Source of the DNA: Saprospiraceae bacterium
GTDB taxonomy: Bacteria > Bacteroidota > Bacteroidia > Chitinophagales > Saprospiraceae
DNA length: 38,171 nucleotides
Direction: 5' to 3'
Assembly: GCA_020848965.1 (NCBI GenBank)
Contig: JADLHE010000075.1
Coordinates: 1 to 38,171, forward strand
In this document: one piece after another, positions 5,308 through 31,813 of the stretch
How positions within the stretch are numbered: position 1 is the stretch's first letter
Layout of the letters: each line of letters begins with the position of its first letter
Notes under the pieces: generated by a model
Databases searched by the model: none
Told to the model about the DNA's origin: nothing
Seen by the model: the letters and a program-made list of their open reading frames with translations, nothing else
Program-made: the position numbers and the translations under genes

Positions 5308-5363
5308 GAAAATGGAAATTGGAGGTGTAAAGGAAAATAATTAGGCTGTCCAATTCGGGAAGT

Positions 5364-5594
5364 ACATCCCCCTAACCCCCCAATATCATTAACTTAAGGG
5401 TTTTGATTGACAATTGTTGATTACATGATTGTTGATTTTTGATGTGATGGAGGATTTAAAATTGGCAATGTGCCAACATCTGCTATCAACATTCAACCAT
5501 ATCATCAACAATCATGTAATCATGTAATCAACAATTGTCAATCAAAAACAAGACAATGGCGCTAAGTTAATGTCATTGGGGGTTAGGGGGATGT
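5364..5594. repeat. Nested long inverted repeat (about 231 bp) between eda-like and exuT-like genes
   Basis: Outer arms 5364-5396 / 5563-5594; inner arms 5401-5436 / 5504-5547 (right arm has an extra 8-bp ATGTAATC copy); small hairpin TTGGCA-ATG-TGCCAA near the centre. Confidence 0.9.
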
Positions 5595-5664
5595 CTGTGC
5601 GAATTGAACGGCATTTAAATTTCATCTTAACACCTTGTAATTGGGGCATTAAGGTAGCGGGAAT

Positions 5665-6336
5665 TCAGAAATTCCTCAACTTCGAAATCAGCGCCAACGT
5701 TTCCCGCACCCGTTTTTCCAAGGAGTCAAAATCGCCGCTTTTCAGCACCTCCGACGAGATGAGCTGCGAGCCGAGGCCCACGCAGGTCACGCCCGCTTGG
5801 AACCACGCCCGCAGGTTTTCTTCCGTGGGTACCACGCCGCTGGTGGGCATGATGTTCGTCCAGGGCTGGGGTGCCCGCACGAACTTGACGAAGTCCGGCC
5901 CCAGCGCATGACTGGGGAACAGCTTGACGATTTCGCAGCCCAGTTCCTCGGCCCGACAAATCTCCGTCACCGAGCCGCAGCCGGGCAGGCTGGCCACTTT
6001 GCGGCGGTTGCAGGTCAGTACCACGTCTTCCCGAAGGGCGGGCGTCACCACGAAATTGGCGCCGAGCTGCATGTATAGCGAGGCCGCCGCCGCATCCGTC
6101 AACGAACCAACGCCGAGTATCATATCGGGCATTTCGCTGGCGCAATGCTTGCTCAATTCCCCAAAGACCTCATGGGCAAAATCGCCCCGACTGGTGAACT
6201 CCAGCAGCCGAGCGCCGCCCCGGTAGCAGGCCGCCACCACTTGTTTGCAAAGCGAAACATCGGCGTGGTAAAACAGCGGCACCATGCCCTGTTCGGCCAT
6301 TTTTTGATAGACTTGAATTCGTGTGAAACGTGCCAT
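5665..6336 (-). CDS. eda: KDPG/KHG aldolase (bifunctional 4-hydroxy-2-oxoglutarate / 2-dehydro-3-deoxyphosphogluconate aldolase)
   Basis: MARFTRIQVYQKMAEQGMVPLFYHADVSLCKQVVAACYRGGARLLEFTSRGDFAHEVF...; KDPG aldolase fold signatures. Confidence 0.88.
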   Translation of the reverse strand: MARFTRIQVYQKMAEQGMVPLFYHADVSLCKQVVAACYRGGARLLEFTSRGDFAHEVFGELSKHCASEMPDMILGVGSLTDAAAASLYMQLGANFVVTPALREDVVLTCNRRKVASLPGCGSVTEICRAEELGCEIVKLFPSHALGPDFVKFVRAPQPWTNIMPTSGVVPTEENLRAWFQAGVTCVGLGSQLISSEVLKSGDFDSLEKRVRETLALISKLRNF

Positions 6337-6344
6337 TTTAGTTG

Positions 6345-6424
6345 GTTGACGGTTGTCGGTTGACGGTGGTCGGTTGACGGTGACCGAACCACCTACTACC
6401 GACCACCGACCACCGTCAACCGAT
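6345..6424. repeat. Direct plus inverted repeat spacer (GGTTGACGGTGGTC units)
   Basis: CGGTTGACGGTGGTCGGT 6357-6374 is exactly complementary to 6405-6422; further direct copies of the unit flank it. Confidence 0.9.
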
Positions 6425-6425
6425 T

Positions 6426-7439
6426 TTATCTACTTACCCTTCCCGTTGCGTTCCCGGCCATCAGCGCTTCCACTTCGGCCTTTGATACCAGGTTCATGTC
6501 GCCGGGGATGCTGTGCTTTAGGGTTGCGGCGGCAACGCCGAAATGCAGCGCCCACTGCGGGTCGGAAGGGTAGGAGCGGAGGCCAAAGATAAGCCCCGCC
6601 GTGAAAGCATCGCCCGTGCCTACCCGGTCCACGATGTGGGTGACGGGATAGCTGGGTGCTTCGCAAAACTGCTGGCCATCCCAGAGCAGGCCGGAGAAGC
6701 CGTTTTGCGAAGCATTGGGGTTGCTGCGCAAGGTGGTCGCCACCCATTTTGCACGGGGAAAGCGGTTTTTGAGTTGGGCCAGCATGGAGCGTTGTGCCTC
6801 CTCCCCATCGCCCTCCGGCACGATGCCGAAATAGTTGCGGACGTCCTCGGCAGCGCCCACGATGAGGTCGCAGCCAGCGGTCAGTTCCGGCATGACCTCC
6901 TTGGGCTGCTTGCCGTACTTCCAAAGGGCCGCCCGGTGGTTCAGGTCGGTGCTCACGGTCAGGCCCATGCGGTTGGCCACTTCGATGGCCTCCCGGCAAG
7001 CCTCGGCGGCGCTCTGCGAAATGGCGGGCGTGATGCCCGACCAATGGAACCAATCCGCTCCGGCAAAGGCGGCCTCCCAGTCAATCATGCCCGGCTGGAG
7101 CGTGGCCATGCTGCTGTGCGCCCGGTCATACACGACCTTGCTGCCCCGTTGCGAAGCGCCGTTTTCCAAAAAATAAATGCCGACCCGTTCGCCACCCCGC
7201 ACCACGTGGCGCAGCCCGACGCCATGCTTGCGCAATTCGAGGAGCAGCCGCTCGGCCATGTCGTTTTCCGGCAGGCGGCTCACCCATTCGGCGTCCATCC
7301 CGAACCGGGCCAGCGACACGGCCACGTTGCTTTCCGCCCCGCCAATGATGATTTCAAGGCTGGTGGCTTGCGCAAAACGCTGGTTGCCGGGAGGGGTCAG
7401 GCGCAGCATGGTTTCGCCGAAGGAGATTATTTTTTTCAT
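6426..7439 (-). CDS. kdgK: 2-keto-3-deoxygluconate kinase, PfkB family
   Basis: MKKIISFGETMLRLTPPGNQRFAQATSLEIIIGGAESNVAVSLARFG...; C-terminal DRVGTGDAFTAGLIFG PfkB signature. Confidence 0.9.
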   Translation of the reverse strand: MKKIISFGETMLRLTPPGNQRFAQATSLEIIIGGAESNVAVSLARFGMDAEWVSRLPENDMAERLLLELRKHGVGLRHVVRGGERVGIYFLENGASQRGSKVVYDRAHSSMATLQPGMIDWEAAFAGADWFHWSGITPAISQSAAEACREAIEVANRMGLTVSTDLNHRAALWKYGKQPKEVMPELTAGCDLIVGAAEDVRNYFGIVPEGDGEEAQRSMLAQLKNRFPRAKWVATTLRSNPNASQNGFSGLLWDGQQFCEAPSYPVTHIVDRVGTGDAFTAGLIFGLRSYPSDPQWALHFGVAAATLKHSIPGDMNLVSKAEVEALMAGNATGRVSR

Positions 7440-7475
7440 TCAATTGAGAATGTAGAATTGAGGCTGTGAAGCATG

Positions 7476-7579
7476 TTTTTTGACGCAGATTTTTATGATG
7501 CTTATGATGAATTATGTTGTTGGACGGAACGTCCAACATAAAAAATCATTAAAAATCTGCGTCTTTCTGCGTCAAAAAA
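7476..7579. repeat. Inverted repeat with central hairpin, overlapping the uxaC 3' end
   Basis: TTTTTTGACGCAGATTTTTATGAT (7476-7499) versus ATCATTAAAAATCTGCGTC...TCTGCGTCAAAAAA (7545-7579); centre GTTGGACG-GAA-CGTCCAAC. Confidence 0.88.
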
Positions 7580-8991
7580 CCTGCGTCAAGATTAAAATAG
7601 CTTTTCGCATTTCGGTAGCAAATATCCGCCACCATGCCGCCCAACCACGCCTCATCGTCGGGCAAGAGGCCCCGCTCCACGTCCTGCCCCAGCAAATTGC
7701 AGAGCACCCGCCGGAAATACTCGTGGCGGGGGAAGGAGAGGAAGCTGCGGCTGTCCGTCGTCATGCCGATGAAGGTGCTCAGGATGCCCAAATTGGACAA
7801 AGTATTGAGCTGTTTTTCCATGCCGTCCGCTTGGTCGAGGAACCACCAACCGGAGCCGAACTGGATTTTACCCTTGGTTTTTCCATCGTTGAAATTGCCG
7901 CACATCGTCGCAAATGCCTCATTTTCAGCGGGATTGATATTGTAGAGGCTGGTTTTTGCCAATTGGTCGTCCCGGTCGAGGGCATCAAGGAACTGGGCCA
8001 GTGGCAGTGCCTGCGGCAGATCGCCGATGCTGTCCACCCCGGCGTCGGCACCAAGGGCGGCCAAGAGGCGGCTGTTGGTATTGCGGAGCGGCCCAAGGTG
8101 GAACTGCTGCACCCAGCCCCGTTCGTGGTACATCCGGCAAAGTTCGAGGAGCAAGGCCCCAGCAAAAGCAGCGGGATTGGAGTAGGCTTTGGCGTATTTT
8201 GGGTTCAAAAAATCTTCAAATTCATCCGTTAAGCTCCTCGACATCGCCATTGCCAAGGGCATTTGCGCCAGCCCGTGGTCGGCGATGCTGCAGCCGTTTT
8301 CATGGAAAAAATCCACCCGTTTTTGCAGGGCTTCCACCAAGGTGTTAAAATCCCGGATGGCGACGCCGCTGGCCACTTCCAGTTTTTTCAGATAGGCGAG
8401 GAAAAGAGGGCGGTCGTGGATTTGCAGTGCCTTGTCCGGGCGGAAACTGGGCAGCACCTGCACGCTCCAGCCACTTTCGGCGATGGAGCGGTGGTGTTCG
8501 AGATTGTCGCAGGGGTCGTCGGTGGTGCCAAGCAGTTCCACTTTGAATTTCTCTACCAGCCCCCTTGCCGAAAAGCCCGGCGATTGCAGCAGGCTGTTTG
8601 CTTGCTCATAAATGGCGGCTGCCGATGCCTCGTTCAGGTATTGGTCAATGCCGAAAATGCGCTTCAATTCCAAGTGGCTCCAATGGAACAGCGGATTGCG
8701 CAGCGTTTGCGGCAGGCATTGCGCCCAAGCCAAGAATTTCTGCTGGTCGGAGGCGCTGCCCGTTATGAACTGCTCGTCCACGCCCAAGGCCCGCATGGCC
8801 CGCCACTTGTAGTGGTCGCCCTTGAGCCAGACCTCCGTCAGGGTCTCGAAGCGTTTGTCCGCCGCCAATTCATCTGGTGGGAGGTGGTTGTGGTAGTCCA
8901 CGATGGGCAAATGGGCGGCGTGGCCGTGGTAGAGCCGCCGAGCCATTTCGCTTTGCAGCATGAAATCGTCGTGGAAAATAGTGCTTTTCAT
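7549..8991 (-). CDS. uxaC: Glucuronate isomerase
   Basis: From ATG at 8991: MKSTIFHDDFMLQSEMARRLYHGHAAHLPIVDYHNHLPPDELAADKRFETLTEVWLKGDHYKWRAMRALGV...; the ORF extension to 9114 overlaps the divergent gene and is probably not used. Confidence 0.93.
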   Translation of the reverse strand: MKSTIFHDDFMLQSEMARRLYHGHAAHLPIVDYHNHLPPDELAADKRFETLTEVWLKGDHYKWRAMRALGVDEQFITGSASDQQKFLAWAQCLPQTLRNPLFHWSHLELKRIFGIDQYLNEASAAAIYEQANSLLQSPGFSARGLVEKFKVELLGTTDDPCDNLEHHRSIAESGWSVQVLPSFRPDKALQIHDRPLFLAYLKKLEVASGVAIRDFNTLVEALQKRVDFFHENGCSIADHGLAQMPLAMAMSRSLTDEFEDFLNPKYAKAYSNPAAFAGALLLELCRMYHERGWVQQFHLGPLRNTNSRLLAALGADAGVDSIGDLPQALPLAQFLDALDRDDQLAKTSLYNINPAENEAFATMCGNFNDGKTKGKIQFGSGWWFLDQADGMEKQLNTLSNLGILSTFIGMTTDSRSFLSFPRHEYFRRVLCNLLGQDVERGLLPDDEAWLGGMVADICYRNAKSYFNLDAGFLTQKDADF

Positions 8992-9104
8992 GGCGTCGTG
9001 CAAAAGGTCTTGGCCTTGAGGTTCGACGCAAAGAAACATTGATTTATGTCGAATTAGGCGGTAGCTCGCAGTTAAAATTGCTTTATTTGCCCAAAGTGAA
9101 ATCC

Positions 9105-9680
9105 ATGCACCCACTTATTGCCCATTTTCAAACATACTTGCCGCTGAGTGCCGAGGAAATGGAGCTGATTACCGGAAGGGCGAGCCAGCGGAAAGTCAAG
9201 CGGCGGCAGTTGATTTTGCGGGAAGGATTTACCTGCAAGCATTACAGTTTTGTGGTGCGTGGCTGCTTCCGAATGTACGCCATTGACGAAAAAGGCACGG
9301 AGCACAACGTCCAATTCGCCGCCGAGGGCGATTGGATTGCCGACATCGGCAGTTTCCATGCGGGCAAGCCGAGCGGGTTCTGCATCGAGGCCATCGAGCC
9401 ATCGGACATCCTCCAAATCGAGCAGCAGGACTTGTATTTCCTGTACACCAATATCCCCAAGCTCGACCGCATTTTCAAGGTCATCATCGAGAACAAATTC
9501 ATCGAATTGCAGAACCGGGTTTTGCAAAACATCAGCTCCACCGCCCAGCAGCGCTACCTGCATTTTTTGGAGCAATACCCGCACTTAGCGAACCGCCTGC
9601 CCAATACGCAAATCGCTTCTTATTTGGGCATCACGCCAGAGTTTTTGAGCAAAATTAGGAAGGATTTGGCGGGGCAATGA
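9105..9680 (+). CDS. Crp/Fnr family cyclic-nucleotide-binding-domain regulator
   Basis: MHPLIAHFQTYLPLSAEEMELITGRASQRKVKRRQLILREGFTCKHYSFVVRGCFRMY...; C-term HTH IASYLGITPEFLSKIRK. Confidence 0.85.
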   Translation: MHPLIAHFQTYLPLSAEEMELITGRASQRKVKRRQLILREGFTCKHYSFVVRGCFRMYAIDEKGTEHNVQFAAEGDWIADIGSFHAGKPSGFCIEAIEPSDILQIEQQDLYFLYTNIPKLDRIFKVIIENKFIELQNRVLQNISSTAQQRYLHFLEQYPHLANRLPNTQIASYLGITPEFLSKIRKDLAGQ

Positions 9681-9764
9681 GCGGATTTCTTAAGATAGTT
9701 TAAGGTTATCCCCAATCCATTTGTCAGACCTTTGCAGCCTCATTTTAAATTAAAAATCAGGATT

Positions 9765-10853
9765 ATGAAAAGGATGACGACACTGTTTCTGTTCATATTA
9801 TACGGCCAATTGGTAATGGCTCAGCGCCCCTCCGTACCAACAGATGGGAACGTTTATGTCAATTCTGCATTGGGAATTGATACCAATAATGGCAATAAAG
9901 AAAGTCCATTGAAGTCATTGAGCGAGGCTGCCAAAAGGGTGACTGCATCAGAAGGCGAAGGAGCAATCACTATTTATCTTTCGCCGGGTGTTTATGGTTT
10001 GGCTGAGACCGCAGATTTTAACGCCACAAAATGGAAGTTTTCAAAAAAGAATCGGCTGACAGTGCGGGCCGAAACTTTGCCGGATGACGAAAAATGGAAT
10101 CCATCGGATATGCCTATCCTTATTTCCACCATGCCGTTTTCAACGGAGAAAAACGACAAAGGCGAAACAACTGGCGGGCAAAATTTTGGCATATTGGTGC
10201 AAAACAGCCATGTGACCATCCAAGGTTTGAGGATAATGGGCGAACCCGTCCACGAGAACCCCTCCTACGGCATGTTGATAAGGAATTATCCTATTGTTTG
10301 GGAGGGCAAAAACTTGGAAGATTTAAGGGTTACTCAATGCCTGTTTATCGGCAATAGATTTGCCGTGCCCAATCACCTTGGAATTTTGGCAAATGGTACA
10401 GGCTTGGAGGTTGACCATTGTGTGTTTCACGGTGTCAAAGATGCTGTTGTGATGTGGAACAGCCCGGCATCCAACTCTTCCATGCACCACAACCTCATTA
10501 TAGATAGTTATGGAGGTATCGTTTGGACATGGTCAGCCTCGGATGATTTCAGATTCTACAACAATGTGGTCAGCAATGCCAATGTGCTCTGGATGCTCGA
10601 CAAAGACGAAAAATTGTCTTATACCGTTGAAAACTCAATCATTGTAGGCTACAATTCATTGGTAAATAAAGGTGGCGGCGCTCATGGATTTGGTGAAAAA
10701 GCGGACCCAGCCAAATTGAGAATAAACAAGGATGTAGTTTTGAAAACAACGGGGAAACTTGAAATTATTGAAGACCAAATTAGCAGAATTTTCCTCCATA
10801 TCAAACCCGGCACGTTGGGCGCTGATTTGGGAGCAGGGCTTTTCACCAAATGA
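9765..10853 (+). CDS. Exported right-handed parallel beta-helix (pectate-lyase-like) protein
   Basis: ATG at 9765: MKRMTTLFLFILYGQLVMAQ signal peptide; GNVYVNSALGIDTNNGNKESPLKSLSEAAKRV and IQGLRIMG/VTQCLFIGNR/VDHCVFHGV/MHHNLIIDS rungs. Confidence 0.8.
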   Translation: MKRMTTLFLFILYGQLVMAQRPSVPTDGNVYVNSALGIDTNNGNKESPLKSLSEAAKRVTASEGEGAITIYLSPGVYGLAETADFNATKWKFSKKNRLTVRAETLPDDEKWNPSDMPILISTMPFSTEKNDKGETTGGQNFGILVQNSHVTIQGLRIMGEPVHENPSYGMLIRNYPIVWEGKNLEDLRVTQCLFIGNRFAVPNHLGILANGTGLEVDHCVFHGVKDAVVMWNSPASNSSMHHNLIIDSYGGIVWTWSASDDFRFYNNVVSNANVLWMLDKDEKLSYTVENSIIVGYNSLVNKGGGAHGFGEKADPAKLRINKDVVLKTTGKLEIIEDQISRIFLHIKPGTLGADLGAGLFTK

Positions 10854-10887
10854 ATTTTATCGCAAAATCAAACCCCAAAACTCCCTT

Positions 10888-11670
10888 TCAATGAATATGA
10901 ATCCCCCCATTCACATCAATAGTAGCCCCAGTAATAAACCCTGAAAGCTCCGAAGCCAAAAACAAGCAAGTTCCCGCCAATTCAATGGCTTTGCCCACCC
11001 GTTTTAAAGGAATGGCGGCTATGACGCTCTTTAATTCCTCCTCATTAATTCCATCCAGCATGGCGGTTTCAATCATGGCGGGGCAAATCACGTTGGCACG
11101 GATGCCCTGCGGTGCAAACTCCCTCGCTATGGACTTGGTGAGGCTAATCACGCCACCTTTTGATGCGGCATAATGCGTGCCTCCGACCAAGCCGCCGCCT
11201 CGTTGGGCAGCCAAGGAAGCCAGATTAACGATGACGCCCGCTTGTTTTTCCGTAAATACTTTTAAAACGCTTTTGCAGATATTAAAACTGCCTTTCAGGT
11301 TAACGTCCATGATATCCGCATATTCCCCTTCGTTAATGGACAATATGCCACCGGATTTAACTACGCCCGCACAATGCACCAAGCAGTCAATTGTGCCAAA
11401 ATTCGCCACCGCTTTTTCAATGGCAATGTCGCAATCGGCTGCATTTCTAATATCGCATTTTATGGAAATCACTTCGGGGTTGAACCCAATTTGCGCTGCA
11501 ATTAAATTGGCAATTCCTTCATTTACAATTAAGTCAAGCACCACGATTTTAGCGCCATGAGCGGCAAAAAGTTCTGCCGTGGCATAGCCGATGCTGCGGG
11601 GCGATGCCGCACCTGTGATGACGCAAACCTTGTTTTCTAAGAGTAGGGGATTGTATTTGTTAATGCTCAT
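10888..11670 (-). CDS. Short-chain dehydrogenase/reductase (SDR)
   Basis: MSINKYNPLLLENKVCVITGAASPRSIGYATAELFAAHGA...; YAASKGG active site; C-term GATIDVNGGIHIH. Confidence 0.88.
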   Translation of the reverse strand: MSINKYNPLLLENKVCVITGAASPRSIGYATAELFAAHGAKIVVLDLIVNEGIANLIAAQIGFNPEVISIKCDIRNAADCDIAIEKAVANFGTIDCLVHCAGVVKSGGILSINEGEYADIMDVNLKGSFNICKSVLKVFTEKQAGVIVNLASLAAQRGGGLVGGTHYAASKGGVISLTKSIAREFAPQGIRANVICPAMIETAMLDGINEEELKSVIAAIPLKRVGKAIELAGTCLFLASELSGFITGATIDVNGGIHIH

Positions 11671-12865
11671 AATTAATGGCGGCTTTTTGAGCAATTAAAG
11701 ATGCTATATCAGCAGCGGAATAACCCAACTCCAGCAACAAATCCTGGGTGTCCCAACCGATTGGCACGGCGGGGGCACGAGGCGAAGGATACGCACCATC
11801 CACTTGTATGGTCGAACGGATGACGGCAGCCTTGCCCTCCGTCGGATGGTCTTCAAAAGCTACCAAACCTACGGCTTTCAAATGCGGGTCGGCGGTAAGT
11901 GTTTCGAGCGAATGGCAGGGCATGGCTGGAAGGTCTGCTTGCTGGAAAAGGTCAAGCCATTCGGCAGTGGTTTTGTTTTCTAAAGGGGCCCCCCGCACCG
12001 CAAACCATTCCGCCACATATTTGGCACGGTTGGCGATGGTCGAAAAGCGCATATCGTCCAATAAATCATGCTTATCGGTCAATTTTAAATACGCCCGCAC
12101 CTGTGCGTCGGTATTGATGCTGAAAGAAATATAGCCATCTTTCGTTTTCACGGGCTGGTTGTGCGGGCTTAACAAGCGGAGGTCGCCCACGGGGCCTACG
12201 GGCGGGTCGAAACTCTGCTGCGCCAAATGCTCTTGCAGCACAAAAGCCGCCATCGTTTCGAACATCGGCACTTCGATGCTACTGCCTTTTCCCGTCTGTT
12301 GGCGCTGCATGAGGGCAGCCATGACCGTACCCGCCGTGATTTCGCCCACGACATGGTCGCAAATCAACATCGGAACATAAGCGGGCTTGCCGTCACGGGC
12401 AAGCGTCAAGCCGGCAATGCCCGATGCGCCCTGCAAAACGCTGTCATAAGTCGGCAAGCCGGAATAAGGCCCATCCGTGCCGTAACCCGTAATCATGCAA
12501 TAGACTTTATCAGGAAACTGCGCAAGTATGGTCTGGGCATCCAAACCCAAGCGGGCAAGGGCATCGGGGCGCATATTGGCAACTACGACATCGCATTTTT
12601 CCACCAATTTTCGGCAAATTTCCTGGCCGCCGGGCGTTTTCAGGTCGAGGCAAATATTGCGCTTGCCCCGGTTGAGGTGCAGGTACCCGCCGGAATGTTG
12701 CCCAGTCGGGGAAGCACCACCAAGACCCCGCATCAGGTCGCCGGAGGGGTGTTCCACTTTAATTATCTCGGCACCGTACTGCCCCAATCGCCAAGTAGCG
12801 AGGGGGCCGACCACGACCGTCGTTAAATCCAATATTTTGATGCCTTTTAGTGGTTCGAAATTCAT
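11660..12865 (-). CDS. CaiB/BaiF family CoA-transferase
   Basis: MNFEPLKGIKILDLTTVVVGPLATWRLGQYGAEIIKVEHPSGDLMRGLGG...; classic CaiB/BaiF N-terminus. Confidence 0.9.
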   Translation of the reverse strand: MNFEPLKGIKILDLTTVVVGPLATWRLGQYGAEIIKVEHPSGDLMRGLGGASPTGQHSGGYLHLNRGKRNICLDLKTPGGQEICRKLVEKCDVVVANMRPDALARLGLDAQTILAQFPDKVYCMITGYGTDGPYSGLPTYDSVLQGASGIAGLTLARDGKPAYVPMLICDHVVGEITAGTVMAALMQRQQTGKGSSIEVPMFETMAAFVLQEHLAQQSFDPPVGPVGDLRLLSPHNQPVKTKDGYISFSINTDAQVRAYLKLTDKHDLLDDMRFSTIANRAKYVAEWFAVRGAPLENKTTAEWLDLFQQADLPAMPCHSLETLTADPHLKAVGLVAFEDHPTEGKAAVIRSTIQVDGAYPSPRAPAVPIGWDTQDLLLELGYSAADIASLIAQKAAINYEH

Positions 12866-12871
12866 GTCCAA

Positions 12872-13705
12872 TCAATCTATTTTGGCTTCCATTTCCACGG
12901 CAACCGAATTATTATCATCCAATATTTTGAGTTGCCACATGGTGTCGCCGCCCTCGGTTGCAATCGTCATTCTCCGGTTGCAGAACAGGGGCGTTAAATG
13001 TTTGACTTTAATTTCCGTTAATTCCAGTTTTAATTCCGTTCGGATATATTCCGTTAAAAGCAGCGTCGCCAAACCACCATTCACCACCAAATCCGGCAAG
13101 CCTTCCACGTTTTGGGCATAGCCCCTGTCCAAATGTATTTTATGGGAGTTAAAGCCTAATGCGGAATATTGAAAAAGCAATGTTTCATCAGGTACGAACT
13201 GTTTTTGGTATTTGGCAGAACTCGGTTCGGCAGGTGTTTTTTCATTTTTGGCGGAGAAATTTTTACCGTCAAGCAAGATATAGGTTTGGGTTTCAACAAT
13301 AGCTGGATTTAATGCATCAACCGCTCGCAATTCATGCTGTATGTTCACGATTGCCATCCGCCCAGATTGGCTCGTTTTTTCCATTATATTTTTAATAAAG
13401 CTTGTTTTCTCCAAGACGGAACCAATCACAATATCGCCTTGATACGATACGCTCCTGCCGCCCAAGAGCAACCTCGGCAAGCCAAGTTCGGGCATGGGCA
13501 CGCCCAGACCGGGGAACCCGTCAGGTCGCAGAGCGGATTTCCGGGTCTCGCCCGCCAGCAGGAAAAAGTGCCAGCCTTTTGGCAAATGCCTGCCTTCCAC
13601 GTATGGTTGCGCATCCAAATCGAGCATGGAGGCTACCCGACATACCTGTGTGGGGCTGCATATTTCCTGCTTTATTACGGGATGTTCTATGTCCGAAATT
13701 TCCAT
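12872..13705 (-). CDS. HTD2/MaoC-like dehydratase (mesaconyl-C4-CoA hydratase-like, FAS1-like dehydratase domain)
   Basis: From ATG 13705: MEISDIEHPVIKQEICSPTQVCRVASMLDLDAQPYVEGRHLPKGWHFFLLAGETRKSALRPDGFPGLGVPMPELGLPRLLLGGRSVSYQGDIVIGS...; C-terminal HKIHLDRGYAQNVEGLPDLVVNG hot-dog motif. Confidence 0.75.
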   Translation of the reverse strand: MEISDIEHPVIKQEICSPTQVCRVASMLDLDAQPYVEGRHLPKGWHFFLLAGETRKSALRPDGFPGLGVPMPELGLPRLLLGGRSVSYQGDIVIGSVLEKTSFIKNIMEKTSQSGRMAIVNIQHELRAVDALNPAIVETQTYILLDGKNFSAKNEKTPAEPSSAKYQKQFVPDETLLFQYSALGFNSHKIHLDRGYAQNVEGLPDLVVNGGLATLLLTEYIRTELKLELTEIKVKHLTPLFCNRRMTIATEGGDTMWQLKILDDNNSVAVEMEAKID

Positions 13706-13770
13706 TTTGCTTTTCAATGATTGGATAGGGTGGCTTGAGTCAAAACCTTCCAACCCCAAAGATTTTGCAA

Positions 13771-13778
13771 CAAAATTA
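13771..13778 (-). promoter_or_regulatory. Possible Bacteroidota -7 element TAATTTTG for the 13705 operon
   Basis: Exact TAnnTTTG match on the minus strand, about 70 bp upstream of ATG 13705; no convincing -33 seen. Confidence 0.25.
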
Positions 13779-13851
13779 GAAAGAGTTTTTTTAAATTTGA
13801 AATTCTATTTTCATATTTGCAAAATTTTTCACCACTTCCAACTCCATTTTT

Positions 13852-14268
13852 ATGAAATTCAAATACCACCACATGAATATTTGCACGGAAGATGTGCAAC
13901 GGACTTCGGCGTTTTACCAAAACGTCTTTGGGCTTTCCCGCATACAGGACGAAGAACATTCGTTGGTAGGAGAAGATACCGCCAACCGCTTCGACGGCGT
14001 GGTTGACTTCCTGACAGACGGTGCGGTCGAGTTCCACATCACCCGCAAAGACGTGAACCTCGGTTTTGAGCAAAAGCAATTTATCAACCCGCTCGAACGG
14101 GGGCATTTCTGCTTCCGCACCGACGATATTGTGGGCTTCAAAAAAAAGCTGGAAGAACAGGGCATCCCTTACGCCGACTACGGCAAATGGGCGTTGGCGG
14201 GCTGGTACCAAATCTTCTTCCATGACCCCGATGGCAATATCATCGAGGTACATCAAACTGGCATGTAA
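13852..14268 (+). CDS. VOC family (glyoxalase/dioxygenase-fold) protein
   Basis: MKFKYHHMNICTEDVQRTSAFYQNVFGLSRI...WYQIFFHDPDGNIIEVHQTGM. Confidence 0.88.
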   Translation: MKFKYHHMNICTEDVQRTSAFYQNVFGLSRIQDEEHSLVGEDTANRFDGVVDFLTDGAVEFHITRKDVNLGFEQKQFINPLERGHFCFRTDDIVGFKKKLEEQGIPYADYGKWALAGWYQIFFHDPDGNIIEVHQTGM

Positions 14269-14271
14269 GCG

Positions 14272-15072: not shown

Positions 15073-15106
15073 CCCTAAGCCACGCCGTCATTTTTCCAAT
15101 TTCATC

Positions 15107-17697: not shown

Positions 17698-17711
17698 AAT
17701 GCTGAAAAAGA

Positions 17712-17790
17712 TCGTCGCCCCTCCATCGCCCCTGTATATCTTGTGCCCATCATTTCTATTTGCGCCGACTTCCGCTTTGAACGATACTAA
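17712..17790 (-). pseudogene. Remnant of an aldo/keto reductase C-terminus
   Basis: Minus translation ...KSAQIEMMGTRYTGAMEGRR parallels the intact AKR C-term ...[22 protein letters not shown] similar to 19432-19480. Confidence 0.5.
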
Positions 17791-17801
17791 GTTTTAAAAT
17801 C

Positions 17802-19347: not shown

Positions 19348-19422
19348 ATGTTTAGTAGCAGGGATAATGGGTATATTGATTACCCGTTTTTGGAAGAATA
19401 GGCAATGGAGAATTCTGTCAAA

Positions 19423-20424
<1,002 letters not shown>

Positions 20425-20469
20425 TTAAATAATTTTTAGCAAGAAAAATTTACTTTGACAAAATTTACA

Positions 20470-20630
20470 ACTGTAAACTGCTTCTCAGAAATTGTGAGGC
20501 ACTGTATGAAATTTCAGATTGCTTCTCAGAATGTCTGCGGAGCTTTCTGAAATTGTTTTTTAAGCCTTTTAATTTCATGATAAGCAGTTTGCAATTGTTT
20601 TTTAAGCCCCAGAATTTCAAAGGAGCTATA
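20470..20630. repeat. Imperfect direct and inverted repeats in the AKR-AraC spacer
   Basis: TGCTTCTCAGAA occurs twice, ATTGTTTTTTAAGCC twice; CAACTGTAAACTGCTT and the reverse complement of AAGCAGTTTGCAATTG. Confidence 0.7.
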
Positions 20631-20722
20631 TGCAGATAATCTTGAAAATGGAATGCGCTAAACGGCTTTTTTGCCTGAAAAACCATCAATAGTCTATCTT
20701 ATTTAGGCTTACCACTTGGTTT

Positions 20723-21622: not shown

Positions 21623-21629
21623 GATTTTT

Positions 21630-21706
21630 TTGGTGATTGGTGATTAGTGAATGGTGATTAGTGTGTTCCGGCCAATCACTAATTACCAATCACTAATTAC
21701 TAATTA
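21630..21706. repeat. Direct plus inverted repeat spacer (GGTGATTAGTG units)
   Basis: GTGATTGGTGATTAGTGAATGG-type left arm versus right arm CAATCACTAATTACCAATCACTAATTACTAATTA; reaches the stop codon of the upstream gene. Confidence 0.85.
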
Positions 21707-22489
21707 CTTCTCCACAAACTCCCTTCCGAACGCCCACGTCACGCCCACGTTCCACTCAAAATCGCTGACGGCAATTTCCGATTTGAGCGCCTTGTTCATC
21801 ATCGTGCTGACGGAAAGCGGCCATTTGCGGTGCGCCAGGGCAAGGATTCCGGCGGCATAAACCCCATCGGCATCATCAATGGCAAGGTAATAAACTTGTG
21901 GGTTGAACTTCAGGTAAAGCTGCTTCGAAAGCGGCAGATTGTTGAAGTCGGCCCGAAGCGAGAGGAAATGGTTCTTGCTGGAAACTTCCTTTTCGATGCC
22001 CGTGCCAAACAGGTAGTAAATGCTCAGCGAGACGTTTTTGTTGAGGTGATAATAGGGCAGGATTTCCAGCGCCGGGTAGAAGCGGCGGGCTTTGACCACG
22101 TCTTTTTCCACGCCGTTCTCGGTCACGGTGGCGCTCCTGAAATTGATGGCCGGGGCGTGGGTGCCGAGGATTAGGTCGAACTTCTCCTTTTTCACCAGCT
22201 TGTACCGCCAGATGAAAATGAAAGACCAAGGCTTGTAATCCAGCATGGAGTACCAAAACTGCGGGTGGAAGCTGAGCCGCCCCTTGTTGCCACTGATATT
22301 GAAGCCGGTCTGCACGGCGGGTTTGCCCAGCGAGAAGGTCGGCACGAGGGAGAAGCCGTTGTTGTTGGCGCTGACCGTGCCGCTGAATTTAAGGCTGTGC
22401 TTTGTGCTGTCTGGCGATTGGCCGTAGGCCGACTTGCCTAAAACAAGCAATGACAACAGAAGCAAGGTGGTGTTGATGATTCGTTTCAT
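21704..22489 (-). CDS. Exported beta-rich (outer-membrane-like) protein of unknown function
   Basis: MKRIINTTLLLLSLLVLGKSAYGQ signal; aromatic alternating-strand pattern; C-term VGVTWAFGREFVEK. Confidence 0.7.
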   Translation of the reverse strand: MKRIINTTLLLLSLLVLGKSAYGQSPDSTKHSLKFSGTVSANNNGFSLVPTFSLGKPAVQTGFNISGNKGRLSFHPQFWYSMLDYKPWSFIFIWRYKLVKKEKFDLILGTHAPAINFRSATVTENGVEKDVVKARRFYPALEILPYYHLNKNVSLSIYYLFGTGIEKEVSSKNHFLSLRADFNNLPLSKQLYLKFNPQVYYLAIDDADGVYAAGILALAHRKWPLSVSTMMNKALKSEIAVSDFEWNVGVTWAFGREFVEK

Positions 22490-22618
22490 GCTGAAATAAT
22501 TGCAATAAATAATGGGGCAAAGCTCCGAAGTTCGCAGATTTTAGCCTAATGGAAATCAAAGCGATAGTTACAAAAATCAAACAGGTTGATTTTTTTTTAA
22601 AAAAGAAAGGGCGGAAAG

Positions 22619-22673
22619 CTTGTGTAACCAAAAGGTTTCGTTTTACATTTGCGAAACCAAACGGTTACACAAG
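22619..22673. promoter_or_regulatory. Bacteroidota promoter (TTG-N21-TACATTTG) inside nested operator palindromes (AACC-N4-GGTT x2)
   Basis: CTTGTGTAACC aaaa GGTTTCG ttttacatttg CGAAACC aaac GGTTACACAAG; -7 TACATTTG 22644-22651, -33 TTG 22620-22622. Confidence 0.8.
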
Positions 22674-22693
22674 AATGTTTTAATCAAATTCCG

Positions 22694-23275
22694 ATGAAAA
22701 AGATTGTCTGGTTCATGCATGTTTCCCTCGACGGCTTCGTGGCCGGGCCGAATGGCGAAATGGATTGGATTAAGGTGGACGAAGAACTTTTCGACTACGC
22801 TGGCAAGCGCACCGCCGCCGCCGACATGGCGCTCTATGGCCGTGTGACTTGGGACATGATGGAAGCCTATTGGCCCACCGCCGCCGATAAACCGAAGGCT
22901 TCCAAGCATGATATCGAGCATTCTGCTTGGTACAAACAGGTGCAGAAAATCGTGCTTTCCCACAGCAGGCAGGGCGACCGCCACCCGCTCACCATGTTTA
23001 TCGGTGAAAATATTGCGGAACAAATTGCGCAGCTAAAACAAGGCGGGGACGGCGAAATCATCATTTTCGGCAGCCCTTCGGCGGGCCGTTTCCTCCTGCA
23101 AAATGGACTAGTGGACGACCTCTGGCTCTTCGTGAACCCGATGCTGCTGGGCGAGGGCATCCCCATGTTCCCGGCACTTTCGAAGCGGGTGAAACTGGAA
23201 CTGGTGGATTCCGAGCAATTGGACAACGGGGTGGTTTGCCTGCATTACGAATGCGCCCGCCCATCTAATTACTAG
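22694..23275 (+). CDS. Dihydrofolate reductase family / RibD C-terminal-like protein
   Basis: MKKIVWFMHVSLDGFVAGPNGEMDWIKVDEELFDYAGKRTAAADMALYGRVTWDMMEAYWP...IIIFGSPSAGRFLLQNGLVDDLWLFVNPMLLGEG. Confidence 0.9.
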   Translation: MKKIVWFMHVSLDGFVAGPNGEMDWIKVDEELFDYAGKRTAAADMALYGRVTWDMMEAYWPTAADKPKASKHDIEHSAWYKQVQKIVLSHSRQGDRHPLTMFIGENIAEQIAQLKQGGDGEIIIFGSPSAGRFLLQNGLVDDLWLFVNPMLLGEGIPMFPALSKRVKLELVDSEQLDNGVVCLHYECARPSNY

Positions 23276-23321
23276 CTTGAATCATGGAGTTCCTAATTTC
23301 TAATTTCCCAATCCCCATTCC

Positions 23322-23651
23322 ATGCGACGTGACGTTTTCCAAGCCATCGCCGACCCAACCCGCCGGGAAATATTGGGTCTGCTGGCGCAAAATCCGCAGA
23401 ACATCAACACCATCGCCGACCGTTTTCCGACGAGCCGGATAGCGATTTCAAAGCATTTGAAAATCCTGACGGAATGTGGCCTTGTGGCTGTAAAACAGCA
23501 GGGTAGGGAGCGCATTTGCGAAGCGCAACCCGAAAAACTGCGGGAAGTGGCTGACTGGGTGGAGCAGTACCGCCAGTTTTGGAACGAGAAGCTGGATTCG
23601 CTGGAGCAGTATCTGGCGAAAATGCAAGGAAAGCAGGTTGATAAGGGTTGA
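23322..23651 (+). CDS. ArsR family winged-helix regulator
   Basis: MRRDVFQAIADPTRREILGLLAQNPQNINTIADRFPTSRIAISKHLKILTECGLVAVKQQGRERICEAQPEKL. Confidence 0.92.
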   Translation: MRRDVFQAIADPTRREILGLLAQNPQNINTIADRFPTSRIAISKHLKILTECGLVAVKQQGRERICEAQPEKLREVADWVEQYRQFWNEKLDSLEQYLAKMQGKQVDKG

Positions 23652-23730
23652 TAACGGTTCATGAGGGTTGATTTCCCTCATGGCGAGCGCCCCATCAACC
23701 CTTATCAACCCTATCAACTTTTATCAACCT
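23635..23730. repeat. Direct plus inverted repeat spacer (GGGTTGATAA units) with central hairpin
   Basis: AGGTTGATAAGGGTTGATAA left; ATCAACCCTTATCAACCCTATCAACTTTTATCAACCT right; centre CATGAGGG-ttgattt-CCCTCATG. Confidence 0.9.
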
Positions 23731-24564
23731 ATGCAAAATTCACCCGACTCAACCGAGGGCCGCAGCCTCGAAATCACCCGACTGCTCGACGCTCCCAGAG
23801 ACCTCGTTTGGGAGGTTTGGACGAACCCCGAACACATCCAACATTGGTGGGGGCCAGAAGGCTTTCGCAACACTATCTACAAGATGGAAGTGCGCCCCGG
23901 CGGCGTCTGGGAATTCATGATGCATGGCCCCGACGGCACGGATTACCGGAACCTACACATGTATGTGGAACTGGTGAAACCGGAGCGCATCGTACTGCAG
24001 CATGTGAACGGTCCAAAGTTCACGCTGACGGCCACTTTCACCGAAGAGGGCAGAAAAACCCGCCTCCACTTGCAAAGCCTGTTCGAGAGCGAGGAACAAC
24101 TGGCGCATGTCATCAAAGCGGTCAAAGCAGACGTAGGCTTGAAGCAAAATGTGGACAGGTTGGAAGCGTACGTTGTAGGGCAATCCGAAATCCGCAATCG
24201 TAAATCCGCAATTGTGGAAACCCGCTATGTGTTGGCCGTGCAGAACCTCGCTGCATCCGTTGAGCATTACCAGGAAAAACTGGGCTTTACCACCGACTGG
24301 GCTTACGACGGATGGCATCAGTTGCGGCGTGGCAGCTTCGTGGTCATGCTCGGCGAGTGTTCCGACGACCGCTCGGCCTTTGAGACCCGCAACCACTCCT
24401 ATTTTGCCTACGTGCAGGTGGAGGGGGTAGATGAACTATACAAGGAACTCGTCGGTAGGGGCGCTGAAATCCACTACCCATTGGGAAGCAAGCCTTGGGG
24501 CATGCGGGAGTTCGGCATCATCACCGTGGATGGCCACCGAATTATGTTTGGGCAGCAGTTATAA
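23731..24564 (+). CDS. SRPBCC (AHSA1-like) domain fused to a VOC domain
   Basis: MQNSPDSTEGRSLEITRLLDAPRDLVWEVWTNPEHIQHWWGPEGF... then linker SEIRNRKSAIVE, then TRYVLAVQNLAASVEHYQEKLGFTTDW...GIITVDGHRIMFGQQL. Confidence 0.88.
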   Translation: MQNSPDSTEGRSLEITRLLDAPRDLVWEVWTNPEHIQHWWGPEGFRNTIYKMEVRPGGVWEFMMHGPDGTDYRNLHMYVELVKPERIVLQHVNGPKFTLTATFTEEGRKTRLHLQSLFESEEQLAHVIKAVKADVGLKQNVDRLEAYVVGQSEIRNRKSAIVETRYVLAVQNLAASVEHYQEKLGFTTDWAYDGWHQLRRGSFVVMLGECSDDRSAFETRNHSYFAYVQVEGVDELYKELVGRGAEIHYPLGSKPWGMREFGIITVDGHRIMFGQQL

Positions 24565-27464: not shown

Positions 27465-27472
27465 TTTTTATC

Positions 27473-28378
27473 ATGCAATTCAAAAAAAAGCTGTTAATGG
27501 CCATGATTGGGCTTGCTTGCATGGCATCCGCCAATGCCCAATCCCCATCGGACACTATCCCTTTCACCCTCAACAGCCAGAGCAATATCTGCATCCGTGC
27601 CAGCATCAACGGGGTGGATAGCCTGCTGTTGATGTTCCATTCCTCCAACTCGGGCGTGGCCTTGACATCGGAGGCTGCGGCGAAAATGGCAACGCTCAAA
27701 GACCGCCAAAACATGGAGGTAAACACTTGGGGCGGCAAGGCAACGTCTCAATACAGCGAAAACAACCAGTTGACAATCAGCAAATTGCGATGGGATAGCC
27801 TAACGGTTTTCTTGGACGAGTATTCGGGCGTGGGCACCGACGGGAAGTTCGGCTACGACCTCTTCGACGGTAAAATCGTGGAGATTGACTACGACCATTC
27901 CCGCTTCATCGTACATTCGGAAATGCCCCGGCTGCCCAGCGGCTATGCCGAGGTGAGTTTGATGGAACGGCGCGGCAGCCTCTTCATCCCCGGCACTTTG
28001 AAGCTGGGAAAAACAGTCTATCGTGACAGCTTCATGTTCCACACCGGCTATGGCGGCACGGTGCTGCTCGACCCCAAAATCGGGGAGCGGTACGGGATGC
28101 AGGCCCGCCTGAAGACCATTAGCACGTCGGAGTTGAAGGATTCCTTTGGCAATGTTTTCAAGATAGAAACCAAGGAACTTCCCCGGCTCCGGCTGGGTGG
28201 CAAGCGGCTGAAAAACGTCCCGTTGAGCTTTGCCGCCCGCTCCTCGGACATCCCGATGAAAGTCTTCGGCAACGGGCTGTTGAAGCGGTTCAACGTGGTG
28301 TTCGACTTACAGCGGCAACGGCTTTTTATGAAGCCGAATGGGGCATGGGGGCTGCCGTTTGAGAAGAAGCGAGGATGA
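27473..28378 (+). CDS. Exported retropepsin-like aspartyl-protease-fold protein, probable pseudoenzyme
   Basis: MQFKKKLLMAMIGLACMASANAQ signal; two lobes with LLLMFHSSNSGVALT and SFMFHTGYGGTVL where DTG-type motifs would be expected. Confidence 0.65.
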   Translation: MQFKKKLLMAMIGLACMASANAQSPSDTIPFTLNSQSNICIRASINGVDSLLLMFHSSNSGVALTSEAAAKMATLKDRQNMEVNTWGGKATSQYSENNQLTISKLRWDSLTVFLDEYSGVGTDGKFGYDLFDGKIVEIDYDHSRFIVHSEMPRLPSGYAEVSLMERRGSLFIPGTLKLGKTVYRDSFMFHTGYGGTVLLDPKIGERYGMQARLKTISTSELKDSFGNVFKIETKELPRLRLGGKRLKNVPLSFAARSSDIPMKVFGNGLLKRFNVVFDLQRQRLFMKPNGAWGLPFEKKRG

Positions 28379-28558
28379 AGTGACATCTTTTTGCCGGCTC
28401 AACATTACAATTATAGCTGACAGTTGGATGGCAAAAAGGTGTCATCTCACAGGCGGCCGGTATCGAGATGACACCTTTTTGCCTTTGAAAATCTAGCCAA
28501 TGCGCAGTTGGCAAAAAGATGTCACCTCATAACCTGGGGCTTGCCGTTTGAGAAGAAG
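28346..28558. repeat. BIME/REP-like element: four alternating copies of a 19-bp motif flanked by a 24-bp direct duplication of the upstream gene's 3' end
   Basis: Motif at 28377-28395(+), 28430-28448(-), 28465-28483(+), 28510-28528(-); direct repeats 28346-28369 and 28535-28558. Confidence 0.9.
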
Positions 28559-30470: not shown

Positions 30471-30474
30471 GAGA

Positions 30475-31392
30475 ATGTCCAAGCAATTCATCTTCCTCAT
30501 CTCCCCCCGCACCCATATCCTCGACCTTGCGGGGCCTGACCAAGTGCTGAACGAGGCCATTTTTTACAAAGCGCCTTTTGAAATCCACTACTGCAGCTAC
30601 GCCGCCGACGAGGCGGGCACGGCCTCCGGTTTGCGCTTCGCAAACTTGAAGCACTTCGCCGACATCGAGCCGAGGGAGGGCGACTATATCTTCGTGCCCG
30701 GCATGGACACGGAAGTGCTTGCCAGCACGAGTAGCAGCGTGATGAAAGGCTTATTTGATTGGTTGTCAACGGCTTATGGGCGTGGCGCAAATCTCTGCTC
30801 CGTCTGCACAGGGGCTTTTCTGCTGGCAAAGGCGGGCCTGCTCGACGGCAAAACCTGTACCACGCACTGGAAATATACCCAGCGTTTGCAGCAGCAATAC
30901 CCCCGCCTGAAAGTGCAGGAAAACGTGCTTTTCACCGAAAAGGACGGCATCTTCACGAGTGCGGGCATCGCCTCCGGGGTGGACTTGGCGCTGCACATCG
31001 TCGAGCGGGAAATGGGGGCCTACTTCGCCAACAAAGTGGCACGGGAAATTGTCGTCTATATCCGGCGGGAGGGCGGACAGGCGCAGCAGAGCGTTTTCAT
31101 GAGCTACCGCAACCATATCCATGCGGGCATCCACGCTGTGCAGGACCACCTCGTTGACCACCTCGACCAAAAAAATTCGCTGCCGCAATTGGCGGAACTG
31201 GCGAACATGAGCACCCGCAATTTCACCCGCATTTTCAAAAAGGAAACCAGCATTGCCGTAGGCGACTACATCACCTTGCTTCGCAAGGAAAAGATAGGGG
31301 AACTGCTGAAAAACCCCGATTTGTCGAGGGCGCAACTGGCCCGCCAAGTGGGGCTGGGGAGCGAGCGGCAGTTGGGGAGGTTGATGAAATAG
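30475..31392 (+). CDS. GlxA family regulator (DJ-1/PfpI domain plus AraC HTH)
   Basis: MSKQFIFLISPRTHILDLAGPDQVLNEA...LCSVCTGAFLLAKAGLLDGKTCTTHWKY...LAELANMSTRNFTRIFKKETSIAVGDYI. Confidence 0.92.
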   Translation: MSKQFIFLISPRTHILDLAGPDQVLNEAIFYKAPFEIHYCSYAADEAGTASGLRFANLKHFADIEPREGDYIFVPGMDTEVLASTSSSVMKGLFDWLSTAYGRGANLCSVCTGAFLLAKAGLLDGKTCTTHWKYTQRLQQQYPRLKVQENVLFTEKDGIFTSAGIASGVDLALHIVEREMGAYFANKVAREIVVYIRREGGQAQQSVFMSYRNHIHAGIHAVQDHLVDHLDQKNSLPQLAELANMSTRNFTRIFKKETSIAVGDYITLLRKEKIGELLKNPDLSRAQLARQVGLGSERQLGRLMK

Positions 31393-31393
31393 C

Positions 31394-31738
31394 TCATTTC
31401 TTTTTCTTGCTCGACTTCGCCTTTGGGTTGTATTCCAGGCATTTCCCCAACCAAAATTCAAGGTCGGCTTCGCTTTCATAGCCTTCCGGCAACACGTACA
31501 GGAAGCCGGGCATGTGCTTGCCCTGCATGGCCATCGGTGTGGCGAAGGGCCTTTCTAGTAGTTCGTCGGTCTCGGCGGGGTCAACACGGGCGAGGAGCTT
31601 GCCGTCCCGGTTGGCCCCGGCCAACATCTTGTCGTCCACGAGATAGCAGATGCCGCCGAACATCTTTTTTTCTTCGTAAACAATGCCTTTGGCGGTGAGT
31701 GCGTCGGCAATGCGGGTGGCGGTGATTTGTTTATCCAT
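31394..31738 (-). CDS. TfoX/Sxy N-terminal-domain protein
   Basis: MDKQITATRIADALTAKGIVYEEKKMFGGICYLVDDKMLAGANRDGKLLARVDP... Confidence 0.88.
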   Translation of the reverse strand: MDKQITATRIADALTAKGIVYEEKKMFGGICYLVDDKMLAGANRDGKLLARVDPAETDELLERPFATPMAMQGKHMPGFLYVLPEGYESEADLEFWLGKCLEYNPKAKSSKKKK

Positions 31739-31743
31739 AACAA

Positions 31744-31805
31744 GTTTTGAGTTTGAGGTTTCGAGTTTTGAGTTGGGCCACTCGATACCCAAAACTCGAA
31801 ACTTC
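31744..31805. repeat. Direct plus inverted repeat spacer (GTTTCGAGTTTTGAG)
   Basis: GAGGTTTCGAGTTTTG 31755-31770 versus CAAAACTCGAAACTTC 31790-31805 (1 mismatch); second GTTTTGAG copy in the left arm. Confidence 0.85.
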
Positions 31806-31813
31806 AAAAAAAA

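What the first reader, a model, noticed from the sequence alone, without database searches (positions are those of the whole stretch)
5308..31813. A class of complex intergenic palindromes with divergent sequence but common architecture, all between co-directional genes
At least six spacers (5364-5594, 6345-6424, 7476-7579, 21630-21706, 23635-23730, 31744-31805) contain short direct units on one side and the same units inverted on the other. Several also have a compact central hairpin. The units differ completely between sites (TTGATTACATGATTG; GGTTGACGGTGGTC; TTGACGCAGATTTTT; GGTGATTAGTG; GGGTTGATAA; GTTTCGAGTTTTGAG), so this is not one dispersed repeat family. In several cases one arm carries an extra 7-10 bp tandem copy. 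All six lie between same-strand neighbours. A local process generating inverted repeats, such as template switching at replication forks or an RNA-structure-selected operon element, would explain architecture conserved without sequence.
Basis: partly seen in the sequence, partly recalled or inferred. Interest (0 to 1): 0.8.

Follow-up and report, generated by a model that had tools for sequence, protein, structure and literature searches.

The report
Mobile hairpin elements between bacterial genes
The palindromes are real and are best read as copies of mobile hairpin DNA elements with arms of short (mostly 7-base) repeats, because the same arms elsewhere enclose a gene for one of two small, poorly understood proteins; this gives an orphan protein family, and possibly an old class of cyanobacterial repeats, a testable role.

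Summary
All six palindromes exist and fold far better than shuffles (z -5.6 to -9.2). (1) The units are multi-copy dispersed families, shared across the genus and built on a common grammar: period 7 (or 8-10), C-poor 5' arm. (2) They are not specific to co-directional genes; only ordinary terminators clearly prefer convergent spacers. "Architecture without sequence" does hold: at orthologous spacers of a related species palindrome occupancy is conserved (16/26 vs 4/27, p=6e-4), yet the unit is often unrelated. What they are: in four genomes of this Saprospiraceae genus, 28 of 29 PF05635 genes (23S-rRNA-intervening-sequence / four-helix-bundle protein, "IVP") sit between inverted arms of this kind, against about 1% of control genes. 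Related IVPs carry related arms at unrelated loci. The pattern recurs, more weakly, across Bacteroidota and in cyanobacterial plasmids. Sites A and B match IVP arms in the window's own genome; site C matches arms around a GxxExxY gene; an unlisted palindrome (28375-28530) matches arms around a REP-type Y1 transposase. Sites D-F fit the grammar but have no partner gene yet. I read them as gene-less members of mobile hairpin elements. How they move is inferred, not shown.

The parts
5364..5594 (.). Site A: nested palindrome. Outer arms ACATCCCCCTAACCCCC / GGGGGTTAGGGGGATGT; inner arms TTTTGATTGACAATTGTTGATTACATGATT (30 bp, 100% complementary). Inner part belongs to the family that surrounds PF05635 genes in G000, G008 and G001.
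   Evidence: 71% identity over 168 bp to the palindrome beside IVP gene L165 of the same genome; arm z 18.4 vs reversed decoy 2.1; IVP gene inside these arms in L066/G001
6344..6422 (.). Site B: heptamer palindrome (GGTTGAC / GGTGGTC) filling the spacer between KDG kinase and KDPG aldolase genes; same arms flank IVP gene L151 of the same genome
   Evidence: (87% over 39 bp, both arms); z 14.4 but decoy 10.2; other units at the orthologous spacer in G006, G008, G001, G009, and an IVP gene between arms in G004
7467..7588 (.). Site C: TTTTTTGACGCAGA arms plus a central hairpin GTTGGACGGAACGTCCAAC, between uronate isomerase and KDG kinase genes; dispersed family; same arms flank a GxxExxY (TIGR04256/PF13366) gene in the same genome
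   Evidence: L205:7472-7891 IR score 403 with arms TTTTTGACGCAGAAAGACGCAGATTTTTTATG; absent at the orthologous spacer of G006
21630..21707 (.). Site D: heptamer palindrome (GTGATTA / GTGATTG) between an AraC-type regulator gene and an upstream gene; overlaps the upstream gene's stop codon
   Evidence: octamer GGTTTAGA palindrome at the same place in G006, none in G007/G008; no partner gene found
23635..23730 (.). Site E: 10-mer palindrome (GGTTGATAAG) between an ArsR-type regulator gene, whose last codons and stop lie in it, and the next gene
   Evidence: same unit at the orthologous place in G006 and dispersed copies in G000 L197, G008 and G007; no partner gene found
31744..31808 (.). Site F: heptamer palindrome (GTTTTGA / GTTTCGA) upstream of a TfoX-N gene
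   Evidence: absent at the orthologous spacer of G004 and G001; no partner gene found
28375..28530 (.). Unlisted: four-arm palindrome GAGATGACACCTTTTTGCC; belongs to a family whose arms flank a Y1 (REP-associated-type) transposase gene in the same genome, so a REP/RAYT-type element
   Evidence: arms of L326 GAGGTGACATCTTTTCGCC
20467..20598 (.). Unlisted: long imperfect palindrome ACAACTGTAAACTGCTTCTCAGAAATT, not unit-built; family not determined

Best explanation
The palindromes are members of families of mobile hairpin elements. A full element is a 5' arm of quasi-tandem 7-10 bp C-poor units, a small ORF, and the same array inverted. The ORF is an IVP (PF05635 four-helix-bundle protein) for sites A and B and for much of the unit-built class, and a GxxExxY protein for the site C family. 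The window copies lack the ORF, like MITEs or solo REPs. SHOWN by sequence: the architecture; families dispersed within and between species; near-constant presence of arms around IVP genes in this genus; IVP and arms moving together to unrelated loci; own-genome matches for sites A, B and C; high turnover of unit type at spacers that keep a palindrome. INFERRED: that the protein promotes spread of the hairpins in trans, probably by handling the single-stranded or hairpin form while host replication and repair do the DNA chemistry; that spacers near gene ends are tolerated landing places; that no operon-specific function is needed.
For: 28/29 IVP genes in four genomes have inverted arms scoring >=59 vs 2/197 control genes (Fisher p=3e-32) and 2 of 65 neighbouring ORFs. 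A scan of genus loci not restricted by gene family (IR >=75) found only GxxExxY, Y1 transposase and IVP genes in such loops; the pool does include loci fetched because of Y1/IVP-type hits. IVP pairs >=140 bits: mean arm z 6.7 vs median 0.5 for distant pairs, permutation p=2e-4, and 14 of 16 pairs share no genomic context. 10 of 32 unit palindromes of G000 match own-genome IVP arms at z>=8; reversed decoys 0; genus arms 15 vs 0; arms from other families 0. Bacteroidota-wide: arms >=40 at 19/28 IVP genes vs 4/65, 5'-arm G>C at 28/28 vs 24/65. Cyanobacterial plasmids: 5 of 7. Turnover. G004 has an IVP gene between arms exactly where six other loci of the genus have other spacer contents, five of them solo palindromes.
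Against: Sites D, E and F have no partner gene found, so for them membership rests on architecture and grammar. Co-inheritance of gene and arms as one package explains the IVP-arm correlation without recognition in trans. No target-site duplication was seen. PF05635 shows no catalytic motif: only Q36 and E73 are invariant in eight diverse members. Site B's match is less specific than A's (decoy z 10.2). Phylum-wide, 9 of 28 IVP genes score below 40.
Confidence: 0.7

Rival explanations
1. Local generation: replication slippage and hairpin template switching create and homogenise inverted tandem units in place, so architecture is kept and sequence drifts.
For: 7-bp periodicity with uneven copy number between arms. 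Some orthologous pairs look like in-place drift: GGTTGAC to GGCTGAC/GGTGGAC (L209/L221), and a conserved loop with diverged arms at L198:18082 vs L243.
Against: The same units recur at many unrelated loci and in other species, with own-genome IVP arm matches far above reversed decoys, and they enclose specific protein families. It cannot explain the IVP association. It probably acts in addition, after insertion.
Confidence: 0.12
2. RNA-structure-selected operon element: hairpins kept by selection for mRNA processing, stability or termination.
For: Strong RNA folds. Palindrome occupancy of a spacer is conserved between species while the unit changes (odds ratio 9, p=6e-4).
Against: Also present in divergent spacers, 4/80 vs 42/429 (p=0.21). 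None of the six lies at a terminator-like pattern where scanned (5300-24000). Often absent at the ortholog. Occupancy can equally reflect spacers that tolerate insertions. No Rfam family matches.
Confidence: 0.1
3. Ordinary intrinsic terminators or regulator operators.
For: A separate A-stem-T class exists and is strongly convergent: 19/63 vs 19/366 co-directional and 0/80 divergent; 35745-35779 is one.
Against: The six lack a U-tract and a G+C-rich compact stem, have period 7-10, and have a strongly skewed 5' arm, unlike terminators (43/46 vs 19/38 positive).
Confidence: 0.04
4. All are REP/BIME-type palindromes moved by Y1 (RAYT) transposases.
For: Y1 genes are present and flanked by inverted dispersed palindromes, one family matching window 28375-28530.
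Against: Arms of the Y1 genes recovered are of other sequence families than sites A-F. Unit-type arms surround IVP or GxxExxY genes instead. G004 has only weak or interrupted Y1 hits yet has unit palindromes.
Confidence: 0.04

Closest known systems
Intervening sequences (IVS) of 23S rRNA with S23p/IVP ORF (Coxiella, Leptospira; PMC4990558)
   Same: An S23p (PF05635) ORF inside a long stem-loop formed by terminal inverted repeats; sporadic distribution, regarded as parasitic and horizontally acquired
   Different: Here outside rRNA, between protein genes; arms are arrays of 7-10 bp units; several unrelated arm families per genome; very many ORF-less copies
REPtrons / TIRtrons: RAYT or TIRYT transposase with REP or TIR repeats (PMC3733652)
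   Same: A gene between inverted palindromic repeats whose solo copies are dispersed between genes; several repeat families in one genome
   Different: The enclosed protein is IVP or GxxExxY, not a Y1 transposase; no GTAG tag was looked for or noticed; the true Y1 system coexists with its own repeat families
Nostoc trnL intron P6b heptamer hairpins, Class I TDNGATT / Class II NNTGAGT (PMC4476775), and cyanobacterial STRRs (own knowledge)
   Same: Hairpin built from 7-nt repeats; one motif class repeatedly replaced by another at the same site while structure is kept
   Different: One locus inside an intron; no gene in the loop and no dispersal mechanism reported there. IVP genes inside heptamer arms in Nostoc plasmids suggest a link
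TAACTGA heptamer direct repeats of Beggiatoaceae, Cyanobacteria and Bacteroidetes (PMC4679880)
   Same: Intergenic 7-mers, scattered distribution, suspected horizontal spread
   Different: Mostly direct repeats of one motif (one indirect repeat among 169 sets), no palindromic element or partner gene described
Avd of diversity-generating retroelements (PMC10053308)
   Same: PF05635 resembles Avd, which is essential for retrohoming
   Different: No PF00078 reverse transcriptase detected in G000, G004 or G006, one in G008, so an RT partner is not supported

Membership tests
23S rRNA IVS | PF05635 ORF inside a stem-loop with terminal inverted repeats | tested here: met
   28/29 genes in four genomes; for the family, not for the ORF-less window copies
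23S rRNA IVS | Located inside 23S rRNA and excised by RNase III | tested here: not met
   Window sites lie between protein genes; excision not testable here
MITE-like non-autonomous element | Multi-copy, dispersed, with ends matching a gene-bearing element in the same genome | tested here: met
   Sites A and B with IVP elements, site C with a GxxExxY element
MITE-like non-autonomous element | Ends matching a gene-bearing element: sites D, E, F | tested here: inconclusive
   No arm match above decoys, but the genome is 85.55% complete and in 623 contigs
MITE-like non-autonomous element | Target-site duplication | tested here: inconclusive
   None obvious at empty orthologs, but flanks are too diverged for a clean test
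REP / REPtron | Repeats flank a Y1 (RAYT) transposase gene | tested here: not met
   For sites A-F: Y1 genes carry other repeat families. Met for 28375-28530
REP / REPtron | GTAG or CGTC tag at one end | not tested
   No systematic scan was made
Cyanobacterial STRR / P6b heptamer hairpins | Hairpin arms of degenerate heptanucleotide repeats | tested here: met
   Period 7 in 32/46 unit-built palindromes
Intrinsic terminator | Compact G+C-rich stem followed by a U-tract | tested here: not met
   No terminator-like pattern at sites A-E; site F lay outside the scanned range and was judged by eye
Diversity-generating retroelement | Reverse transcriptase with template and variable repeats | tested here: not met
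   PF00078: 0 in G000, G004, G006; 1 in G008
Known Rfam RNA family | Match at gathering threshold | tested here: not met
   0 matches in the window

The most novel reading that the evidence does not exclude
A widespread class of bacterial mobile elements without a recognised transposase or reverse transcriptase: a small four-helix-bundle protein (IVP/S23, relative of Avd) or a GxxExxY nuclease-fold protein spreads hairpins whose arms are arrays of short units, each protein clade with its own unit. Newly arriving hairpins replace older ones at the same intergenic sites. The heptamer repeats of cyanobacteria would be the same system.
Probability: 0.35. Interest if true: 0.92.

Novelty: new variant of a known kind. 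Interest (0 to 1): 0.78.

Why it matters
PF05635 / TIGR02436 four-helix-bundle proteins were found in 45 of 61 Bacteroidota genomes, up to 16 matches per genome, and have no known function outside DGRs. Finding them consistently inside inverted short-unit arrays, with the same arrays dispersed without the gene, gives them a concrete hypothesis, links the rRNA IVS to a much larger population of elements between protein genes, and offers a possible source for heptamer repeat hairpins such as those of cyanobacteria. It also explains how spacers can keep a hairpin while changing its sequence entirely within a genus. If only the descriptive part holds, it still annotates several hundred intergenic elements per genome (6.7 unit-built per 100 kb in the sample; extrapolation).

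Tried and rejected
(a) Co-directional specificity: rejected. (b) 'Units unique to each site': rejected. (c) General insertion of new palindromes into loops of old ones: outer-flank inverted repeats not enriched, 0/49 vs 39/732 random placements; site A is a nested exception. (d) A phylum-wide hotspot at the kdgK|kdgA spacer: only a few of 80 Bacteroidota loci have a palindrome upstream of kdgA. (e) RT-driven spread: RT absent in three of four genomes. (f) Y1 transposase as mover of the unit-built class: its arms are other families. (g) Rfam: nothing. (i) Wide use of the class: unit-built palindromes were 0 in 357 kb of Flavobacteriales loci, 0.5/100 kb in Nostocaceae plasmids and 1.3/100 kb in E. 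coli, so the solo class is lineage-enriched. (j) First IVP-flank test took the wrong ORF near contig ends; redone with exact coordinates. (k) GxxExxY outside the genus: only 2 of 6 plasmid copies have arms >=54, so this link is thinner than the IVP one. (l) Ten literature searches in open PMC papers found no report of IVP or GxxExxY genes inside such arms; subscription journals are not covered.
Full report
WHERE. The window is contig C75 of G000, a 5.83 Mb genome in 623 contigs. A relative in its genus, G007, has a contig of the same length (51558) as a record of a Saprospiraceae MAG, so the genus is taken to be Saprospiraceae.

OBSERVATION. The six inverted repeats are present and fold with z -5.6 to -9.2. 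A genome sample (479 kb of G000, 397 kb of same-genus G004, own gene calls) shows inverted repeats far above dinucleotide shuffles, and in all spacer classes: in G000 24% of co-directional, 60% of convergent and 6% of divergent spacers at score >=66. Separated by arm structure, two things are mixed. Ordinary A-stem-T terminators account for much of the convergent excess (19/63 vs 19/366 co-directional and 0/80 divergent, p=5e-8 for convergent vs co-directional). Unit-built palindromes occupy 33/366 co-directional, 9/63 convergent and 4/80 divergent spacers, without significant avoidance of divergent spacers (p=0.21).

GRAMMAR. The unit-built class (46 in the two samples) shares rules although the units differ: period 7 in 32/46 (8-10 in the rest), a 5' arm with more G than C in 43/46 (terminators 19/38), and TGA 55 per kb in the 5' arm against 13 per kb on its complement. 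Because each element is a palindrome this holds on both strands. Density per 100 kb is 6.7 in G000, 8.2 in G006, 4.3 in G004, 0 in sampled Flavobacteriales loci and 1.3 in E. coli.

DISPERSED FAMILIES. The units of sites B and C hit many other places in G000 and in G003, G006, G007, G011 and other relatives; units of A and E occur in G001, G007 and G008. The units differ between sites, but each of these is a repeat family.

TURNOVER AT ORTHOLOGOUS SPACERS. At site B the flanks are about 90% identical between G000 and G006, yet G006 has an ATTGTT-type palindrome there; G008 and G001 have an 8-mer type, G009 a short TGGAAAA type, and G004 has a PF05635 gene between AATTGATAATT arms. Site D is a 7-mer in G000 and GGTTTAGA in G006; site C is absent in G006 and site F in G004 and G001. 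Over 53 orthologous junctions, occupancy is associated (both 16, G000 only 10, G006 only 4, neither 23; p=6e-4), while the units are often unrelated, for example atpD|atpC AATGATG vs GTGATTC. Caveat: the G006 loci were partly chosen because G000 has a palindrome there, and spacers that tolerate insertions could give the same association.

LINK TO PROTEIN FAMILIES. G004's IVP gene between palindrome arms led to a test of all PF05635 genes in G000, G004, G006 and G008. With exact coordinates, 28 of 29 have inverted unit arms (score >=59), and the remaining one shows a weaker unit-type match. Controls: 2/197 genes, 2/65 neighbouring ORFs, 2/469 sampled genes, of which one is the GxxExxY gene below. 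Closely related IVPs carry similar arms (16 pairs, permutation p=2e-4) although 14 of the 16 pairs share no genomic context: gene and arms travel together. This shows an element, not recognition in trans. Of 32 unit palindromes in the G000 sample, 10 match own-genome IVP arms at z>=8; reversed decoys give 0 and arms from other families 0.

THE WINDOW SITES. Site A: 71% identity over 168 bp to the palindrome beside IVP gene L165 of the same genome, z 18.4 vs decoy 2.1; in G001 these arms hold an IVP gene. Site B: arms of IVP gene L151, 87% over 39 bp; the reversed decoy is also high (10.2), so the match is weaker evidence. Site C: arms of a GxxExxY gene, L205:7472-7891, score 403. The unlisted 28375-28530 palindrome: arms of a Y1 gene, L326. 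Sites D, E and F: no partner found.

BEYOND THE GENUS. In 28 testable Bacteroidota genomes 19 IVP genes have arms >=40 (4/65 controls) and all 28 have G>C in the 5' arm (24/65 controls), each with its own unit. In cyanobacterial plasmids 5 of 7 IVP genes lie between inverted heptamer-type arrays, for example CAGGGAA in Nostoc, and one lies between cas6 and cas4 in Anabaena sp. 90. GxxExxY genes in Bernardetia and Bacteroides finegoldii plasmids lie between CACAGAG-type arms; four other GxxExxY copies do not reach the threshold.

HOW IT LIKELY WORKS. Most likely the hairpins are mobile and the window copies are gene-less members. The rRNA IVS is an S23p ORF in a stem-loop that replaced the tetraloops of rRNA helices (PMC4990558), and REPtrons show how a gene between palindromes can seed solo copies (PMC3733652). 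PF05635 resembles Avd, essential for DGR retrohoming (PMC10053308), but no RT was found in three of four genomes, so I favour a DNA-level route in which the protein handles single-stranded hairpin DNA and host enzymes complete the copy. This last step is inference. [quoted passage not shown]

VERDICT. Observation confirmed; interpretation partly supported; the better explanation is families of mobile hairpin elements tied to small proteins.

Noticed in passing
window 28375-28530: Four-arm palindrome of a dispersed family whose arms flank a Y1 (REP-associated-type) transposase gene in the same genome: a Bacteroidota REP-like family.
   Followed up: partly
window 22619-22673: Inverted repeat TTGTGTAACCAAAAGGTTTCG / CGAAACCAAACGGTTACACAA in a divergent spacer; looks like a regulator operator, not the hairpin class.
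   Followed up: no
window 19318-19347: Strong 13-pair hairpin GTTCACCCGGTAGG.CCTACCGGGTGAAC found by the terminator scan.
   Followed up: no
L320:1495-1863 (Anabaena sp. 90 plasmid) and L317:1501-1890 (Pseudanabaena): PF05635-type genes next to CRISPR genes: between cas6 and cas4 (with heptamer arms) and just after cas2 (no unit arms).
   Followed up: partly
L049 (G008:C56), site C ortholog: Where G000 has palindrome C, G008 has a 748-bp insertion that appears by eye to encode a nucleotidyltransferase-like and a HEPN-like protein.
   Followed up: no
L203:17994-18217, L204:7085-7225, L205: The site C family carries a second dispersed mini-palindrome TTTTGCTTCGCAAAA at its ends or in its loop: composite elements.
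   Followed up: no
L169/L174 (G004:C41:203654-203964): One IVP gene split into two frames, apparently frameshifted, still between its arms.
   Followed up: partly
L198:18082-18285 vs L243: Orthologous palindromes with a conserved loop and diverged arms, an example of arm drift in place.
   Followed up: partly
unit-built palindromes in G000 and G004: TGA is about four times more frequent in the 5' arm than on its complement; with a 7-bp period this puts stops in all three frames on both strands. Cause unknown.
   Followed up: no
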